This document shows positions 56,617 through 63,456 of a DNA stretch of 64,000 nucleotides, in pieces. Source of the stretch: a bacterium (GTDB taxonomy: Bacteria; Actinomycetota; Thermoleophilia; Solirubrobacterales; Solirubrobacteraceae); assembly GCA_021323635.1 (NCBI GenBank), contig JAJPKQ010000017.1:124001-188000 (forward strand), in the 5' to 3' direction. Position 1 is the stretch's first letter; each line of letters begins with the position of its first letter. The notes under the pieces were generated by a model, which searched no databases, had not been told where the DNA came from, and was given only the letters and a program-made list of their open reading frames with translations. Both the position numbers and the translations under genes were made by a program.

Positions 56617-57651
56617 TCAACCGCCGGCAGCGGTGCCTCCTCCGCTCGTGCCCGGGGCTGGCGCCTGAGCCTGGCTGCCGGTGGTGGCCCCGGCGCTCAC
56701 CTGTTCAGCGCCCTGCTGTGAGCCACCCGCTGTGGGCGCTTCGGGCGCCGCCTGCGATTCGCCCGGTGAGCTGACCGCAGCGGTTGAACCCGCCGTGCTT
56801 TCGGCGGCGATTGGCGCTTCGCCGGCGCTCTGCGAGCCGGCAGCTTCGGCGGAGGGCGCTTGTTCTGTGGAGCCCGCCGGCGCTGCGGAGCTTGGCTGCG
56901 CTGCTTCGCCGTGCGCTTCGGCGCTGCCGGCAGACGCCGCCGTTCCGGCCTTGATCCCGCGCGCAAGAAGCTGCGCGGCGGCTGTCGGCGCGTCGCTGCG
57001 GTCGGCGAGGAAGGTCGTGTGCCCTTCGCCTAGCGGCACCATGCCCAGCCGGGCCGCTTCAGACTCGACACGTGCGCTTGCAGAGAGCGCGGAGTCTTCA
57101 ACCTGCAGCTGCGAGACGCTGCGCTGCAGCGCGCTGCGCGCTTCAAGCGAGCGGCCCACCTGCTCGTTGACCTGCAGGATCGCCACCTGCAGACCGATAA
57201 TGCCGACCAGCGCCGCGCTGATCATCGCGATCCACAGTCGCCCCTGCGCGATCGAGCTCAGGCGGGCAAGCGACGCGCCAAGCCACCCCGGCAGCCGACG
57301 CGCATCGGCGCCAGCGCCTCGGCGCGGGCGCTGCGGGCGCGTCGGGGCGCCCCGTGCTGGCACCGGCAGATGCGCCGGCGCGAGCGCCAGCGCTCCCGTC
57401 ACCGCGCCGTGGATGACAGCGGCTCCTGCGCCGCCTCGCGGGATCGTACGGCGCGCGCGCGCGCTGCGCACCGCCGCTGCCGAGCGGCCAGCGCCCACGG
57501 CGTGCGCGCTATGAGAGCGCCCGCGCCCTGAGATGCGTGCGGCCCCCGAGACCCGCATCGCCCCGCGCGGAGCGCTCTGCCTCCGCTGCGCACCGCTCAG
57601 CCTCTCGCCGGCCGCGGTCGCCGGAGCGCCAGCCGCCTGGGCGACGCTCAT
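56617..57651 (-). CDS. FtsL-like septum formation protein with long tails
   Basis: A protein of 344 residues in the ftsL position between rsmH and ftsI. The first 138 residues are basic and Ala/Arg-rich. One membrane helix is at about 139-158 (LWIAMISAALVGIIGLQVAI), followed at once by a coiled coil (ILQVNEQVGRSLEARSALQR to about 190) and EAARLGMVPLGEG, the FtsL/DivIC pattern. Residues about 225-344 are a low-complexity Ala/Ser/Glu/Gly/Pro tail outside the membrane. ATG 57651 overlaps the rsmH stop (ATGA). Both tails are much longer than in classic FtsL. Confidence 0.82.
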   Translation of the reverse strand: MSVAQAAGAPATAAGERLSGAQRRQSAPRGAMRVSGAARISGRGRSHSAHAVGAGRSAAAVRSARARRTIPRGGAGAAVIHGAVTGALALAPAHLPVPARGAPTRPQRPRRGAGADARRLPGWLGASLARLSSIAQGRLWIAMISAALVGIIGLQVAILQVNEQVGRSLEARSALQRSVSQLQVEDSALSASARVESEAARLGMVPLGEGHTTFLADRSDAPTAAAQLLARGIKAGTAASAGSAEAHGEAAQPSSAAPAGSTEQAPSAEAAGSQSAGEAPIAAESTAGSTAAVSSPGESQAAPEAPTAGGSQQGAEQVSAGATTGSQAQAPAPGTSGGGTAAGG

Positions 57652-58799
57652 CGCACGTTCCCCTCATGGGCTTCAGACTCCGCTTTAGCGTCTTTGCCCG
57701 CGCTCGCCCGAGCGGAGCGATTGCCCGCAGGAGACTGCGGCGCTGCGATCTTCCTTGCCGCCCGCAGGCGCGCGGAGGCCGAGCGCGGATTGCTGCTTGC
57801 CTCAGCCGCGCCCGCGACGATCGCCCGGCGCGCCAACAGCTGCGCTTCGGGCTCACGCCCGCAGGCACAGACGGGCAGCTGGGGCGGGCAGATGCACCCG
57901 CGCGCGCGCGCGCCGAGAAAGCGCTTGACCGCCCGATCCTCGAGCGAGTGGAAGGAGATTGCCGCCAGCCGGCCGCCAGGTGCGAGCAGCTCCCAGGCGC
58001 GCGGGAGCGCCCGCTCGAGCTCGCCCAGCTCGTCGTTGACGGCGATCCGCAGTGCCTGGAAAACGCGCTTGGCGGGATGCCCGCCGCCAAAGCGCACGGG
58101 CGCGGGCAGCGCCGCAGCGATCACCTCGACCAGCTCCTGCGTGCGCTCGATCGGCCGCTGCGCTCGGCGGGCGACGATCGCGCGCGCGATCGCCTTCGCG
58201 CTGCGCTCCTCGCCATAGCGGCGAAAGAGCAGCGTCAGCTCGCGCTCGGTGCAGCCGGCAAGCAGATCCGCCGCGCTCTCGCCGTGCTCGGGGTCCATGC
58301 GCATGTCCAGGGGAGCGTCGTAGGAGTAGGCGAAGCCGCGCTGCGCATGGGCCAGCTGGGCTGCGGAGACGCCAAGGTCGAAGTAGACGATCTGCGCCCG
58401 CAGGCCCTCCGCAGCAAGAGCGTCGAGAGCGGCGCCGAAGCGCGCGCGGATGAAGCGGGTGGCGCAGGGAAGCGAGCTTGAGAGCTCCTCGAAGCGCTGC
58501 TGCGCCGCCGGATCGCGATCGATTGCAATCAGCAGCCCATCCTTGCCAAGCCGCGCGCCAAGGGCCTGGGCGTGACCGCCGGCGCCAAAGGTGCAGTCGA
58601 TCGCCACCTCCCCAGGGCGCGGGTCGAGGAGACAGACCAGCTCCTGCAACAGCACCGGCACGTGGCGATCGGCGCCGACCTGTAGGCGGCCGCTCCCTGC
58701 CGCGCGCGCGCGCCGGGCCACAGCGGCGCGCTCGCCGCCACGCGCTCGCCGGCGCGAGCGCTCGCCCGCACAGACGGTCTCAGCGCTGGTCGCCAGCAC
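57648..58799 (-). CDS. rsmH: 16S rRNA (cytosine1402-N4)-methyltransferase
   Basis: A protein of 383 residues. It has ADRHVPVLLQELVCLLDPRP, the SAM motif DCTFGAGGHAQALG, FDLGVSAAQL, AYSYDAPLDMRMDP, GGHPAKRVFQALRIAVNDEL and AISFHSLEDRAVKRFLG. It methylates C1402 of 16S rRNA. The start GTG 58799 overlaps mraZ by 20 bases; a later GTG at 58721 is possible and would shorten the unusual basic N-terminal extension. The tail after about residue 320 is basic low complexity. Confidence 0.95.
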   Translation of the reverse strand: MLATSAETVCAGERSRRRARGGERAAVARRARAAGSGRLQVGADRHVPVLLQELVCLLDPRPGEVAIDCTFGAGGHAQALGARLGKDGLLIAIDRDPAAQQRFEELSSSLPCATRFIRARFGAALDALAAEGLRAQIVYFDLGVSAAQLAHAQRGFAYSYDAPLDMRMDPEHGESAADLLAGCTERELTLLFRRYGEERSAKAIARAIVARRAQRPIERTQELVEVIAAALPAPVRFGGGHPAKRVFQALRIAVNDELGELERALPRAWELLAPGGRLAAISFHSLEDRAVKRFLGARARGCICPPQLPVCACGREPEAQLLARRAIVAGAAEASSNPRSASARLRAARKIAAPQSPAGNRSARASAGKDAKAESEAHEGNVR

Positions 58800-59223
58800 C
58801 GCTTGTCAGCTCCTTTGCTCCGTTGAGCAGCTCGGGCCGGTAGCTGCCCCAGCCCTCCGGGTCCCAGCACTCAAGGCGCGCGCCAGCACCCACGATCAGC
58901 ACCCGCTCGCGCAGGTTGGCGTGCGCGATCAGCGGCGCCGGCAGCATCAGCCGCTCGCGCGTGTCCAGCCGTGCGTCGTGGCTGTTGCCGAAGAAGAATC
59001 TTTCCAGCTCAATGCGCTTGGCCGACAGCGGCGAGAGCTCTGAGAGCGCGGATTGGGTGTAGGACTCGTAGTCGGCCGCCGGTGCGATCCAGATGCACGG
59101 GCGCATGTCCGGCGGTATCGCAAGGACGATGTCGATCTCGCCGAAGGCCGGCCGGTACTGGCGCGGCAGCATGATCCGCTTCTTCGAATCAAGAGTGTGC
59201 TCGTAGATGCCGCGGAAGGCCAT
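58780..59223 (-). CDS. mraZ: Transcriptional regulator MraZ
   Basis: A protein of 147 residues with two SpoVT/AbrB-like halves: MAFRGIYEHTLDSKKRIMLP (with the conserved DxKxRxxxP) and ARLDTRERLMLPAPLIAHAN (DxxxRxxLP). MraZ forms a ring that binds GTGGG repeats upstream of dcw and usually represses its own operon. ATG 59223 matches the family. It is the first gene of the dcw cluster, and five spaced GTGGG-like repeats are present upstream. Confidence 0.96.
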   Translation of the reverse strand: MAFRGIYEHTLDSKKRIMLPRQYRPAFGEIDIVLAIPPDMRPCIWIAPAADYESYTQSALSELSPLSAKRIELERFFFGNSHDARLDTRERLMLPAPLIAHANLRERVLIVGAGARLECWDPEGWGSYRPELLNGAKELTSGAGDQR

Positions 59224-59326
59224 CGCTTGCTGCTCGCTTGCTCTGTCGGGACCCGATCGCTCTTTGAGAGCCCGGATGGAGGGGTGGGAGGAGCCCCTCC
59301 ACCCGGGCTCGCTGCGGGCACCTTAT

Positions 59327-59372
59327 CCCACTTTCGCCCACAACGGAACCCCTTTCGCACACCCGTTCCCAC
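59327..59372 (-). promoter_or_regulatory. MraZ operator (five GTGGG-like repeats)
   Basis: On the minus strand the repeats are GTGGG (59372-59368), GTGTG (59362-59358), GGGGT (59352-59348), GTGGG (59341-59337) and GTGGG (59331-59327). Spacers are 5, 5, 6 and 5 bases, so units recur about every helical turn. This is the known MraZ box layout. It lies 104 bases or more before the mraZ ATG, and a GGGTGGGAGG/CCCTCCACCC hairpin lies between them. Confidence 0.75.
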
Positions 59373-59584: not shown

Positions 59585-61480
59585 GTGGCTTCGCTGCCAG
59601 CAAAGCGCAAGGGCGTCATCGGCGCAGCCCTGACAGGAGCACTCGCCGCTGCGATGCTCGGCGGCTGCGCCGCAAGCGCCCCGCCGGCGCCCAGCCCCGC
59701 CGGCGCGGTCCCCGCGCGTGCGCCCCTCTACATCGCGCTGGACGTCAGCCAGGAAGGTGCGCTCGCGCGTCTGACGCGCACCGACGCAGCTCGAGTCACG
59801 GGGGCCAAGCAGCCCTACGGCTTCCTCTACCGGCTGCTCTCGCTGCGCGGCGGCAGCGCACCGCGCTCAGCGGTGCTCCCGTTCCTCGGCGCGCAGGCAG
59901 GCGTGTTCCTGGAAAGGATGCCGCCACTGGAAGCCGCCAACGGCTCTCCCGCAGCGCTGATCGCCTTCGCGCGCTCGATTCTCGAAGGCGGGCTGCGCCA
60001 CCTTGCGGGCGCCGCCGTGCCGGGCGCGCTGATCGCCGACGTGACCGACCCCGGTGGCGCCCGCGCCTACATCCGCAGGCAGAGCGCGGGCCTGCACGCG
60101 CGCATCCTCCCGTTCGGCGGCGTCAAGATGACGATCCTCTCCGACGGTCAGGCCGCCGCGGTCGCGCGCTCCTTCCTGCTGATGGGAAATATCGCCGGCG
60201 TGCGCTCCGCGATCGCAACGATCGACGGCGCGCCGGCGCTGCGGCCCGCCTCCCCCTTCGCAGCGATGCATGCCGCTGCACCCACGGGCGCGGTGGCAGC
60301 CGTCTATCTGCGCCTGCCAAGCAGAGCCGAAGCCTCCGAAGCGGGCAGCGAAGGCGAAGCGCAGTCGAGCAGCGCGCAGAGCGAAAGCTCAGGCAGCCTC
60401 ACCGCCAACCCTAAGGCGGCCAAGGGCGCGCGCAGCAGTGGCCGCGCGCCCGCCAGTGCCGGCGAGCCGCCCTACCTGCGCGAGCTGATCGGCCCTCCGG
60501 GCAGCGCTCTGTACGTGAGCCTTGTGCCCCGCTCTGGCTCGATACGGCTGGTGGTCGATCGGCTGCGCGGCGAAAGCGCCGATCCGCCGAGCACCTCCGA
60601 AAGCGAACAGCAGCAGAGCACCCAACAGCTGCTCGCCTCGCTGCCTGAAAGCTCCTGGGTAGCTGCGGCGCTTGAAAATCTGCCCGATGCGCTTCACAAG
60701 GTGCTTGCGCTCGCCCCCGCGCTTGCCTACCTCAGCGGCGCCGCGCCAAGCCCGCAGGGTGCCGCCAGCGGCAGCGAAGCGAGCTTCCGCTCGGCTCCTC
60801 TGCCGTTCACCGCCGGCCTGCAGGCGCTGCTCGGCACGCTCGCTGGCCTCGGTGGCTCCTCGCTCGCCGGTCTGATCGCGCCGGCTCGCCAGCTCGTGGG
60901 CGCGCTTGGCGCACATCCCCGCGCTCTGCGCCAGGCGCTCGCCGGCTGGATGGGTCCCGCAGCACTCTTCCTCAGCGGTACAAGCCTGCTTGAAGTCGAT
61001 GGAGCGATTGTCATCAGCTCCCGCGACGAAGCCCGCTCGCGCGCTGCTGTCGCGCAGCTGGGCGCGCTCTTCCGCAGCGCCCACATTGCCGTCAAGCCGC
61101 TCTCCGTCGCCGGGGCGCAAAGCGCGATCGCCGTCGCTCTCGCGGGTCTGCCCGGCGGGCTTCAGATCGCCGCCGGAGAGGGCAAGCTGGTGGCGGGCTT
61201 CGGCGCGGCGCCGATCACCGAGGCGCTATCGCCAAGCGTGCCGCTCGGCTCCGCCACCGCCTACCGCAGCGCGCAGAGCGCGCTTGGCGAAGGGCTCTCG
61301 CCGCGCCTGCTCATCTCCTTCCCCCAGCTCACCGCGATCCTCGGCCTGCTGGGCGCCAACAGCAGCCCGAGCCTTGCGACGGTGCTTCCTCACCTCTACT
61401 CGCTCTCGTCGCTGACGCTCGGGGTCGGACGCATCGGCTCCGAGCAGCGCACTGCGGTCGTGCTGAGCCTCACGCCCTGA
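59585..61480 (+). CDS. DUF3352 lipoprotein
   Basis: A protein of 631 residues from GTG 59585. The start LPAKRKGVIGAALTGALAAA is a lipoprotein signal, with lipobox MLGGC and the lipidated Cys near residue 31. The body fits DUF3352: repeated helix-strand segments such as APLYIALDVSQEGALARL, GFLYRLLSLRGG, VAAVYLRLPS and a final SLTLGVGRIGSEQRTAVVLS. A Ser/Glu-rich stretch (about 260-295) is an insertion. The role is unknown. It is divergent from mraZ, so it shares the 361-base region with the MraZ operator. ATG 59501 is in frame but would bury the signal peptide. GAA outnumbers GAG. Confidence 0.8.
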   Translation: MASLPAKRKGVIGAALTGALAAAMLGGCAASAPPAPSPAGAVPARAPLYIALDVSQEGALARLTRTDAARVTGAKQPYGFLYRLLSLRGGSAPRSAVLPFLGAQAGVFLERMPPLEAANGSPAALIAFARSILEGGLRHLAGAAVPGALIADVTDPGGARAYIRRQSAGLHARILPFGGVKMTILSDGQAAAVARSFLLMGNIAGVRSAIATIDGAPALRPASPFAAMHAAAPTGAVAAVYLRLPSRAEASEAGSEGEAQSSSAQSESSGSLTANPKAAKGARSSGRAPASAGEPPYLRELIGPPGSALYVSLVPRSGSIRLVVDRLRGESADPPSTSESEQQQSTQQLLASLPESSWVAAALENLPDALHKVLALAPALAYLSGAAPSPQGAASGSEASFRSAPLPFTAGLQALLGTLAGLGGSSLAGLIAPARQLVGALGAHPRALRQALAGWMGPAALFLSGTSLLEVDGAIVISSRDEARSRAAVAQLGALFRSAHIAVKPLSVAGAQSAIAVALAGLPGGLQIAAGEGKLVAGFGAAPITEALSPSVPLGSATAYRSAQSALGEGLSPRLLISFPQLTAILGLLGANSSPSLATVLPHLYSLSSLTLGVGRIGSEQRTAVVLSLTP

Positions 61481-61623
61481 TCGCTGCGGCACACGGTCAC
61501 TGCAAGATGCCGTTCAGCACGCTTCGCAGGCAGGAAATCCACCTACGATGGCGACGGTCGGTTCTTGCAGTCGCCACGGACGGCGGGGCCACCAGCCCAA
61601 CAGAAAGGAACGGCTCTCTTGCC

Positions 61624-62121
61624 ATGCAACGGACGCGTCGCGGAAACTATGAATCGGGGCAGGATTTCGTGCTCGAGTACGGCCCCCTGCGCTTCACCTT
61701 CAACGAGCTTGACTTCACCGAGCGCTGCGAGCAGGCGGCGATCCGCCTGGCCTTCATCGGCGGCCAGCTCGGCGAGGGCGAGCGCGAAGACCTCGTCAAC
61801 CTGACCGTCAACGGCTCCGTCAGCGAGCCGATCTCGCCGCTCGGGCGACATGTCAACGACTGCTGGCCTGAGCTCGTCGGACCGGCGTCGCGATCGCTGG
61901 TGCACTGGCTGCGGCGATTGATCTTCCGCTCAGCGTGGCTTGACCAGCGCGTCCGCGAGGGCGAGCTGGATGTGAGCTTCGAGGAGTCTGACGGCAGCTT
62001 CACCTACATCTCGCCGGAGCGACCGGGCGAGGCGATCGAGCTGGCCTCCCCGCCCTCCTGGCGACGCGTCGCCTACCTGCCCACGCACTCGGGCCCGGGT
62101 CACTCCGGCAGCAGCATCTGA
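61624..62121 (+). CDS. Protein of unknown function
   Basis: A protein of 165 residues from ATG 61624, with AAAGGAA about 14 bases upstream. The sequence is acidic and soluble: DFVLEYGPLRFTFNELDFTE, RLAFIGGQLGEGEREDLVNL, GRHVNDCWPELVGPASRSLV, HWLRRLIFRSAWLDQRVREG and SDGSFTYISPERPGEAIELA. There is no membrane segment and no motif I recognise. It is convergent with the Rho-like gene, 51 bases apart. Composition and codon use look like a real gene. Confidence 0.72.
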   Translation: MQRTRRGNYESGQDFVLEYGPLRFTFNELDFTERCEQAAIRLAFIGGQLGEGEREDLVNLTVNGSVSEPISPLGRHVNDCWPELVGPASRSLVHWLRRLIFRSAWLDQRVREGELDVSFEESDGSFTYISPERPGEAIELASPPSWRRVAYLPTHSGPGHSGSSI

Positions 62122-62172: not shown

Positions 62173-63456
62173 TCAGCGGCCGAGCAGCCGCGATAGCAGC
62201 GAGCGTCGGCGGCGCAGCCTCGCGGCGCGCTCGCGCGCAATCGCCGCCGCGCCCTGCTCGCCGACCAAAAGCTCGACCTTGAGCGTGCCGGAGGCCTGCG
62301 GATCGATGCTGAAGGGCTGGCCGGGAGCGTGCTCGCCGCTGAGCGTCACCACCGAGGTCTCGCCGCCGAACGGCGCGCCTGCCGTGGCGATGATCGTGAG
62401 CGAGCCCGCGCCGCGCTCGTTGCGAGCATGCGCCATCACGCGCCTGGCCTCCCCGGCCTCGAGGCCGTCCAAGGTGTCGATCAGCACCAGCGCGCGCCCG
62501 CCCGATGCGCAGACGCGCTCGGCCTTCGCAAGCACCGGCTCGAGCGCCTGCAGACGCTCCTGCGCAGAGGCGGTGAAGGTGAGAGCGCTTACGGGAGCCG
62601 GGGCACCCTCCGCGCGACTGCCGATCTCCTCTGGGCGCACCCCGGAGAGCACGAGCTGGCAGTCGAGATCGCCACGGCCTGCAAGCGCCTGCGCGATGTG
62701 CGCCAAGAGCTCGCTCTTGCCTGCGCGCGTCGGCCCTGCGATCAGCGCCCGGGAGCCAAAGCCCAGCGGCGCCAGCGCCTCCAGCTCGCGCAGCGCCGGG
62801 TCGCCGCCGAGCTCCAGGCGCTCTTCGGGGAAGGCCGGCCCTCCTGTGCGCGCCGCGCGCTCGCGCCGACCACGCTCGCGCGCCGGCGGCGGCGCCTGGA
62901 CGGCAAGGTCGGCAGGAACGCCGTTGATCGTCTCCACCCGCACCAGCGCGGCGCTGCCCTGGGTGCGGCGGCGGCGGCGCACCGGTCCGCTCACGCGATC
63001 ACCATTCTTCAGCTCGCAGCGCTTGACCTGTGAGGGCGAGATCGCGACCTCCTCCTCGCCGCCGTCCGGCGCCTTGGCGCGCAGCACCGCCGCGCCACCC
63101 GCTCGCAGCTCGATCACGCCCTCCACCACTTCGCCGGTTCGGAAGCTGCTCTGCGCCGGCTCAGCCGCGGGCTCGGCCGCCGCACGACGCGGCGCGCGCC
63201 GGGGCGCCCGGCGCGACCTGCCGGCGCCCGTGCGCGTCCGCGCACCCTCGCCTTCGATCTCCGCGAGCTCGTCCTCCTTGACCGCTGCGGCGCGCTCGCG
63301 GAGATCGCGCGCGGTCACCGCGCCGCCCGCGAGGATCGCGGCGATCAGCTCCTCGCGACGCAGCAGGCGGTAGCCGTCGATGCCCATCTCGTTGGCGATC
63401 GCGTGCAGGTCGGCGAGCGGGCTTGCCTGCAGCTCGGTGCGGTCAAGGACTGTCAT
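62173..63456 (-). CDS. Divergent Rho-like transcription termination factor
   Basis: A protein of 427 residues. The N-terminus (ELQASPLADLHAIANEMGID, GYRLLRREELIAAIL) is a clear Rho_N domain. A basic linker (about 60-100) leads to an RNA-binding OB-like region (about 105-180) with the Rho-typical ISPSQVKRCELKNGDRVSGP and RVETINGV. The ATPase part is reduced: Walker A is GPTRAGKS (241-248) and Walker B is VLIDTLD (324-330). Where Rho has DERPEE it has SGVRPEE, and the R-loop and C-terminal ARAYN region are missing. It may be a lineage-specific Rho or a paralogue. ATG 63456. Confidence 0.8.
   Translation of the reverse strand: MTVLDRTELQASPLADLHAIANEMGIDGYRLLRREELIAAILAGGAVTARDLRERAAAVKEDELAEIEGEGARTRTGAGRSRRAPRRAPRRAAAEPAAEPAQSSFRTGEVVEGVIELRAGGAAVLRAKAPDGGEEEVAISPSQVKRCELKNGDRVSGPVRRRRRTQGSAALVRVETINGVPADLAVQAPPPARERGRRERAARTGGPAFPEERLELGGDPALRELEALAPLGFGSRALIAGPTRAGKSELLAHIAQALAGRGDLDCQLVLSGVRPEEIGSRAEGAPAPVSALTFTASAQERLQALEPVLAKAERVCASGGRALVLIDTLDGLEAGEARRVMAHARNERGAGSLTIIATAGAPFGGETSVVTLSGEHAPGQPFSIDPQASGTLKVELLVGEQGAAAIARERAARLRRRRSLLSRLLGR

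What the first reader, a model, noticed from the sequence alone, without database searches (positions are those of the whole stretch)
59327..59372. Five-unit MraZ operator upstream of mraZ
Five GTGGG-like units with 5, 5, 6 and 5-base spacers match the geometry of the ring-shaped MraZ binding site; known boxes usually have three or four units. The extra base between units 3 and 4 splits them into a group of three and a group of two. The same region faces the divergent DUF3352 lipoprotein, which could be co-regulated.
Basis: partly seen in the sequence, partly recalled or inferred. Interest (0 to 1): 0.55.

Follow-up and report, generated by a model that had tools for sequence, protein, structure and literature searches.

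The report
MraZ repeat operator with leader hairpin
The repeats in front of the cell-division gene mraZ are a real, conserved site laid over its promoter, probably bound by the MraZ protein itself, and just downstream lies a conserved RNA hairpin, so far seen in one order of bacteria, that matched no RNA family in the database searched.

Summary
In detail: five GTGGG-like units with 5, 5, 6 and 5-base spacers lie on the minus strand at 59372-59327, upstream of mraZ. Relatives confirm a MraZ-type operator and refine it. Units 4 and 5 fill the 17-nt spacer of the predicted promoter; unit 3 overlaps its -35 element; units 2 and 3 are degenerate. The upstream GTGGG sits 31 bp (49 of 55 loci) or 30 bp (6 of 55) from unit 4 throughout the own family. 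Longer arrays and 11-bp upstream steps recur elsewhere in the phylum, so five units are not exceptional. The divergent DUF3352 neighbour is conserved in the genus; co-regulation is open. The less ordinary part lies outside the given coordinates: a 43-nt hairpin (59310-59268, minus), starting about 3 nt after the predicted transcription start, with a CCUCCC loop core and a covarying 17-bp stem. Its model matched 85 of 103 sampled genomes of the order (titles: Solirubrobacterales), one place each, and 0 of 196 of other orders of the class. No Rfam family reached its cut-off. Its function is inferred.

The parts
59368..59372 (-). unit 1, GTGGG, 31 bp upstream of unit 4
   Evidence: perfect GTGGG at -31 in 20 of 22 genus loci and 29 of 33 other own-family loci; at -30 in the other 6 of 55
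59358..59362 (-). unit 2, GTGTG (commonest in the genus: ATGTG)
   Evidence: ATGTG at -21 in 13 of 22 genus loci; may instead belong to another factor's site
   Evidence: GGGTT at -10 in 15 of 22 genus loci; GTGTT at -10 in f2 8/9, f3 8/9, f4 3/3, other own-family loci 9/33
59343..59348 (-). predicted -35 hexamer of the mraZ promoter, TTCCGT (genus: TTGCAT in 11 of 22)
   Evidence: alignment with relatives; the generic promoter scan found none
59337..59341 (-). unit 4, GTGGG, inside the promoter spacer
   Evidence: GTGGG in 21 of 22 genus loci
59327..59331 (-). unit 5, GTGGG, inside the promoter spacer next to the -10 element
   Evidence: GTGGG in 22 of 22 genus loci
59320..59325 (-). predicted -10 hexamer, TAAGGT (17-nt spacer)
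   Evidence: alignment with relatives (TATGTT or TAAGTT in 12 of 22 genus loci)
59268..59310 (-). conserved leader hairpin of the mraZ mRNA: 17-bp stem, 9-nt loop
   Evidence: covariation; distribution; strand and position; fold
59285..59293 (-). hairpin loop CUCCUCCCA with the conserved core CCUCCC
   Evidence: CCTCCC in 53 of 53 extracted hairpins, but the extraction pattern required it; 2 of 55 rows gave none (a run of N; a second MraZ paralogue). It is also in the 13 further leaders found by the covariance model and printed
58780..59223 (-). mraZ, 147 aa, MraZ domain twice, DxxxR in both halves
57648..58799 (-). rsmH (mraW), next gene of the dcw cluster
   Evidence: PF01795, 331.8 bits
59501..61480 (+). 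divergent DUF3352-like lipoprotein gene (GTG at 59585 is a likelier start, with lipobox LGGC)
   Evidence: (DUF3352 19 bits, below the 26.8-bit cut-off); start choice and lipobox are inference from the sequence

Best explanation
[quoted passage not shown] MraZ binds a 10-bp-phased array laid over its own promoter: units 4 and 5 occupy the -35/-10 spacer, unit 3 overlaps the -35 element, and units 1 and 2 form an upstream extension one base out of the 10-bp register, so that unit 1 lies 31 bp, about three helical turns, from unit 4. Bound MraZ would exclude RNA polymerase and repress the cluster. The transcript would then begin almost directly with a conserved RNA hairpin whose pyrimidine loop is recognised by an unknown partner (protein or RNA), acting on stability or translation of the dcw mRNA. 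Shown: the sequences, their conservation, the covariation and the distribution. Inferred: MraZ binding, repression, the transcription start, and any role of the hairpin.
For: Array. MraZ protein: (PDB MraZ entries, best E 1.8e-13). E. coli MG1655 shows three strong units with 10-bp steps. Promoter: TTGCA-like at -7 and TA at +16 of unit 4 recur through the order. Hairpin: 95.6% of stem cells paired, 11 of 17 pairs with changes on both sides, covariation score 0.398 against 0.206 in shuffles (0 of 500 reach it) and at most 0.143 when slid; 52 G.U against 7 A.C cells, which points to the RNA of the mraZ strand; one place per genome in 85 of 103 sampled genomes of the order and 0 of 196 of other orders of the class; no Rfam family at its cut-off.
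Against: No binding, expression or start-site data were available. Units 2 and 3 are poor GTGGG matches, and the 2+3 register is not the better-scoring one in the window itself. The window's -35 (TTCCGT) is weaker than the genus form, and the generic scan found no promoter. The loop is no more complementary to the downstream leader than shuffles (mean run 4.19 against 4.47), so no cis partner was found. The shuffle control does not remove relatedness of the sequences. 2 of 200 shuffles of the window's leader fold as well.
Confidence: 0.75

Rival explanations
1. Unit 2 (and perhaps unit 1) is not read by MraZ: the conserved GTGCA upstream and the TTGCA of the -35 element form an inverted repeat (TGCAA-N6-TTGCA) bound by a different factor.
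For: GTGCA at -19 in 13 of 22 genus loci and 6 of 33 other own-family loci. In Dietzia the response regulator MtrA binds the mraZ promoter (PMC9602371, passages).
Against: Unit 1 is a perfect GTGGG at -31 or -30 in 55 of 55 own-family loci; the window itself lacks the inverted repeat.
Confidence: 0.3
2. The hairpin is not an RNA element but inverted MraZ boxes in DNA: the loop CTCCTCCCAC reads GTGGGAGGAG on the other strand and the stem carries GTGG.
For: T at stem position 10 in 49 of 53 and A at loop position 26 in 45 of 53 hairpins keep box-like letters.
Against: The box T is lost in the loop in 8 of 53, and in the stem it is exchanged with compensation (T10-A34 to A10-T34 in 4 of 41 rows). 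52 G.U against 7 A.C cells. The commonest distance from unit 4 differs between families (31, 33, 42, 37 bp in f1-f4), so there is no common 10-bp register.
Confidence: 0.1
3. The array, or its upstream unit, also controls the divergent DUF3352 lipoprotein, which is why it is long.
For: The divergent neighbour is conserved in 19 of 21 other genus loci. Among f1-f4 both the neighbour and the unit at -31/-30 are seen only in the own family: the neighbour in 0 of 20 f2-f4 loci and 0 of 18 longer named f2-f3 loci.
Against: Own-family genera without the neighbour within 900 bp in longer loci (g5 L171, g7 L125, g13 L154 and others) keep unit 1 (L010, L027, L014). The sequence beyond unit 1 is poorly conserved in the genus. 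Three f57 loci of another order also have a unit at -31 (their neighbours were not examined).
Confidence: 0.25
4. The hairpin is a transcription attenuator or terminator in front of mraZ, like the terminator that yields UpsM in Rhodobacter.
For: It is a very stable stem in the leader; PMC5089854 (abstract) describes such a leader before a dcw cluster.
Against: There is no T run after the stem; 0 terminator-like sites found.
Confidence: 0.07

Closest known systems
MraZ boxes of E. coli, Burkholderia cenocepacia and Mollicutes
   Same: Direct GTG-type repeats with 10-bp period at the mraZ promoter, next to a MraZ gene; three strong units in E. coli (L056), four repeats in B. cenocepacia (PMC7761207, passages), AAAGTG[T/G] repeats in Mollicutes (PMC8475190, passages).
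   Different: Here the units lie in the promoter spacer and upstream of it, whereas in B. cenocepacia and E. coli they lie downstream of the -10 element (PMC7761207, passage); the most upstream unit is set 31 bp from unit 4.
mraW RNA motif, Rfam RF01746 (Actinomycetales)
   Same: A hairpin RNA with a pyrimidine loop (CUUCCCC, seen in the sequences) in the mraZ-mraW region of Actinomycetota.
   Different: The present leader does not match its model; 10 of 198 phylum genomes match it, none of the own class. In the 7 matching genomes whose mraZ coordinates are listed nearby it follows mraZ on the same strand, whereas the present hairpin precedes mraZ and has another loop.
UpsM leader of the Rhodobacteraceae dcw cluster
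   Same: A clade-specific structured leader before mraZ.
   Different: UpsM comes from a 268-nt leader with a Rho-independent terminator (PMC5089854, abstract); here the leader is short and no terminator was found.

Membership tests
MraZ operator (MraZ box) | GTGGG-type direct repeats with 10-bp period at the mraZ promoter | tested here: met
   with one 11-bp step
MraZ operator (MraZ box) | three or more contiguous well-matching units | tested here: inconclusive
   at 4 of 5 matches the window has no run longer than two; a core of three is met only if the GGGTT/GTGTT form of unit 3 counts
MraZ operator (MraZ box) | cognate MraZ with two domains and DxxxR motifs | tested here: met
   (PF02381), alignment to PDB MraZ; that DxxxR defines MraZ is recalled
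MraZ operator (MraZ box) | conserved upstream of mraZ in relatives | tested here: met
MraZ operator (MraZ box) | MraZ binds it and represses mraZ | not testable with these tools
   needs gel shift, footprint, reporter
mraW RNA (RF01746) | match to the covariance model | tested here: not met
mraW RNA (RF01746) | position between mraZ and mraW | tested here: not met
   the hairpin is upstream of mraZ; mraW RNA follows mraZ in 7 genomes (coordinates)
Structured cis-regulatory leader RNA | covarying stem, strand preference, fixed place before one gene | tested here: met
Structured cis-regulatory leader RNA | changes expression of the gene behind it | not testable with these tools
   needs reporters and mutants
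Intrinsic terminator or attenuator | T run after the stem | tested here: not met
   0 found

The most novel reading that the evidence does not exclude
The hairpin is a new class of leader RNA confined to one order of bacteria: nearly every dcw transcript there starts with a stem presenting a constant CCUCCC loop to a dedicated partner (a protein, or an RNA with a Shine-Dalgarno-like GGAGG), giving a second, post-transcriptional layer of control over division genes on top of MraZ autorepression from a helically phased 2+3 array.
Probability: 0.45. Interest if true: 0.6.

Novelty: new variant of a known kind. Interest (0 to 1): 0.45.

Why it matters
It replaces a single-site curiosity by a clade-wide rule: where MraZ boxes sit on the promoter, how far out of register the upstream unit is, and that the same order carries a structured 5' leader in front of its division gene cluster. 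Both make testable predictions in cultured Solirubrobacter species, and the 31-bp displaced unit is a natural test of how a MraZ ring engages more than four boxes.

Tried and rejected
The protein search of genome contigs found no relative; the hairpin pattern search served for named loci. Cis pairing of the loop with the downstream leader was tested and not supported; Shine-Dalgarno-like tetramers occur in 25 of 53 leaders against 27% in shuffles. The generic promoter and terminator scan gave nothing. At E up to 10, Rfam matches to the leader stay below their families' cut-offs and are mostly microRNA families. The looser run count (3 of 5 matches) is of little use: depending on the group, shuffles reach runs of four in 10 to 90% of cases. 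My first count of DUF3352 neighbours used short loci and a single query; on checking, a profile search of longer loci changed it, and the odds of the DUF3352 rival went from 0.2 to 0.25. No structure prediction was run, since the MraZ fold is clear by sequence. MraZ operators were sought in papers, and mraW RNA, Solirubrobacter mraZ or mraZ leaders; in what I saw (listings, and the passages or abstract named) none describes this array or hairpin. Eraso et al. 2014 is not held, and no paper on the newer MraZ structures in the PDB (9qlr, 9qlg, 9sx6 and others) appeared among the listed results.

Full report
What is there. On the minus strand from 59372 to 59327 the window reads GTGGG-AACGG-GTGTG-CGAAA-GGGGT-TCCGTT-GTGGG-CGAAA-GTGGG. 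It lies about 100 bp upstream of mraZ (59223-58780), which carries the MraZ family twice, matches solved MraZ structures and is followed by rsmH, an FtsL-like gene (below its Pfam cut-off) and a penicillin-binding protein gene.

More than chance. In the 64-kb window, both strands, the site ranks first for its geometry (28.6 bits, next 13.6), and its two unit pairs rank first and third among all 10-bp pairs (post hoc, as the geometry was taken from the site). Its chain score was reached by 0 of 100 letter shuffles of its upstream region. The own genome shows no general excess of the pair pattern (9 places against 7 for the reversed control); only this site has two.

Comparison with relatives. 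A search of 61 genomes of the order found MraZ in 55. I collected 55 loci from 54 of them besides the window (one genome has two mraZ-like genes), and later loci from further own-order genomes, other orders of the class and the rest of the phylum. A MraZ start was found in 272 of 283 sequences held (282 loci and the window; many loci are duplicates of one genome). Loci were aligned on the two downstream units. Left out for a weak anchor: L006 (truncated gene), L036 (second paralogue) and E. coli. The 48 phylum loci were not aligned in this way, only scanned for runs.

Register. In the own genus (22 loci with the window) and the rest of its family (33 loci), GTGGG stands 31 bp before unit 4 in 49 of 55 and 30 bp in 6 of 55. 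TTGC with varying ends stands at -7 and the -10 hexamer at +16, a 17-nt spacer, so units 4 and 5 fill the promoter spacer. Unit 3 is mostly GGGTT or GTGTT at -10 and overlaps the -35 element; GTGTT is found there in f2 8 of 9, f3 8 of 9, f4 3 of 3 and in 9 of 33 other own-family loci. That favours an extra base between units 2 and 3. Family f2 has a regular four-unit array (GTGGG or GTGGA at -20 in 9 of 9) and no comparable unit at -30/-31. Three f57 loci, from another order, also carry GTGGG or GTGGA at -31.

How unusual five units are. Counting only units with at least 4 of 5 matches, all 8 f8 loci have runs of four; among 48 loci from elsewhere in the phylum 10 have runs of four and 2 of five (0.2% of shuffles reach four), and five of the 48 have the steps 11, 10, 10. 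By the same strict count the window has no run longer than two, because unit 3 is degenerate. L198 reads as six units with 10-bp steps if one weak unit is allowed. The E. coli control gives a run of three. So long arrays and an 11-bp upstream step recur; they are no peculiarity of this window. That 31 bp is about three turns of B-DNA is my inference.

The divergent gene. A DUF3352-like gene points away from mraZ in 19 of 21 other genus loci (L034 by a partial match; the two misses have only 709 and 328 bp upstream). In other own-family genera tblastn found it in 6 of 19 loci (L021 and L084 by partial matches), and a profile search in 8 of 19, together 11 of 19, and in 9 of 29 longer named loci assigned to the family by MraZ similarity. 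In f2-f4 it was found in 0 of 20 loci by both methods and 0 of 18 longer named loci (f2 and f3). The window's protein scores below the Pfam cut-off (19 against 26.8 bits).

The leader hairpin. Between the promoter and mraZ lies a 43-nt hairpin (59310-59268). It was extracted from 53 of 55 rows (the window and 54 of the 55 loci). L006 was not among the rows, but the leader printed shows it. The two misses are a run of N (L025) and the second MraZ paralogue (L036). L052 pairs at only 11 of 17 positions in this register; the model matches 44 nt there. The extraction pattern required the loop core CCTCCC, so its constancy is partly by construction; the 13 further leaders found by the covariance model and printed also have it. 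On 41 distinct rows, 95.6% of stem cells pair, 11 of 17 pairs show changes on both sides, and the covariation score is 0.398 against 0.206 in shuffles and at most 0.143 with slid partners. G.U cells outnumber A.C cells 52 to 7, as expected if the mraZ-strand RNA folds. In the own family the hairpin starts 30 to 33 bp after unit 4 in 32 of 34 measured loci, about 3 nt after the start predicted from the -10 element. The window's leader folds to -45.9 kcal/mol (z -3.3; 2 of 200 shuffles as good).

Distribution of the hairpin. The covariance model matches 85 of 299 sampled genomes of the class: 85 of 103 in the own order and none of the other 196 (strict filters; the 103 and 196 are counted from the listing). 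In a phylum sample it matches 6 of 246, all of the own order. Where a genome has two matches, both are the two strands of one place. Of the 18 order genomes without a match, four gave no MraZ match either (G049, G057, G058, G159), and the two that I read (L217, L218) carry a variant stem with the same loop core. A pattern search over 84,980 genomes gave 99 places: 74 have array and mraZ by strict patterns, 9 mraZ only, 11 array only, 5 neither.

Is the hairpin known? No Rfam family reaches its cut-off in the leader, and at E up to 10 only matches below cut-off appear. The mraW RNA motif (RF01746) was found in 10 of 198 phylum genomes, none of the own class; in the 7 whose mraZ coordinates lie nearby it follows mraZ on the same strand. 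Its loop reads CUUCCCC. UpsM in Rhodobacteraceae is a different leader with a terminator (PMC5089854, abstract). Paper searches listed nothing on this hairpin; the library holds only open papers.

How it most likely works. MraZ autorepression by occupying the promoter follows from the unit positions and from the repressor role reported in E. coli (cited in PMC8475190, passages). The hairpin's role is open. Pairing of its loop with the downstream leader is no better than chance and no terminator was found. An inverted MraZ box is unlikely, because the box T is changed with compensation in the stem and lost in 8 of 53 loops. A loop-binding partner or 5'-end protection of the mRNA remain. Confidence in the combined reading is 0.75; in a new regulatory RNA class 0.45.

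Noticed in passing
59363-59343, minus; genus loci such as L011 and L026: GTGCA and the -35 TTGCA form an inverted repeat TGCAA-N6-TTGCA in many genus loci (GTGCA at -19 in 13 of 22), lost in the window itself; possible site of a second regulator.
   Followed up: partly
L036 (G045:C9): A second, divergent MraZ paralogue in one genome of the order, without the conserved array or hairpin.
   Followed up: no
62173-63456, minus: Rho-like protein with Rho_N and Rho RNA-binding domains but an ATPase domain below its Pfam cut-off (19.8 against 29.5 bits).
   Followed up: no
61507-62121, plus: Protein of 204 aa without a Pfam family, 64-76% identical to proteins encoded in five mraZ loci that also hold a Rho-like gene (L125, L094, L115, L101, L095).
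   Followed up: no
991-1327 minus and 2212-2297 plus: RNase P RNA (class A) and a tRNA with a long variable arm.
   Followed up: no
L261, L266, L267, L276, L278: MraZ arrays of other families of the phylum with an 11-bp step at the upstream end (11, 10, 10).
   Followed up: partly
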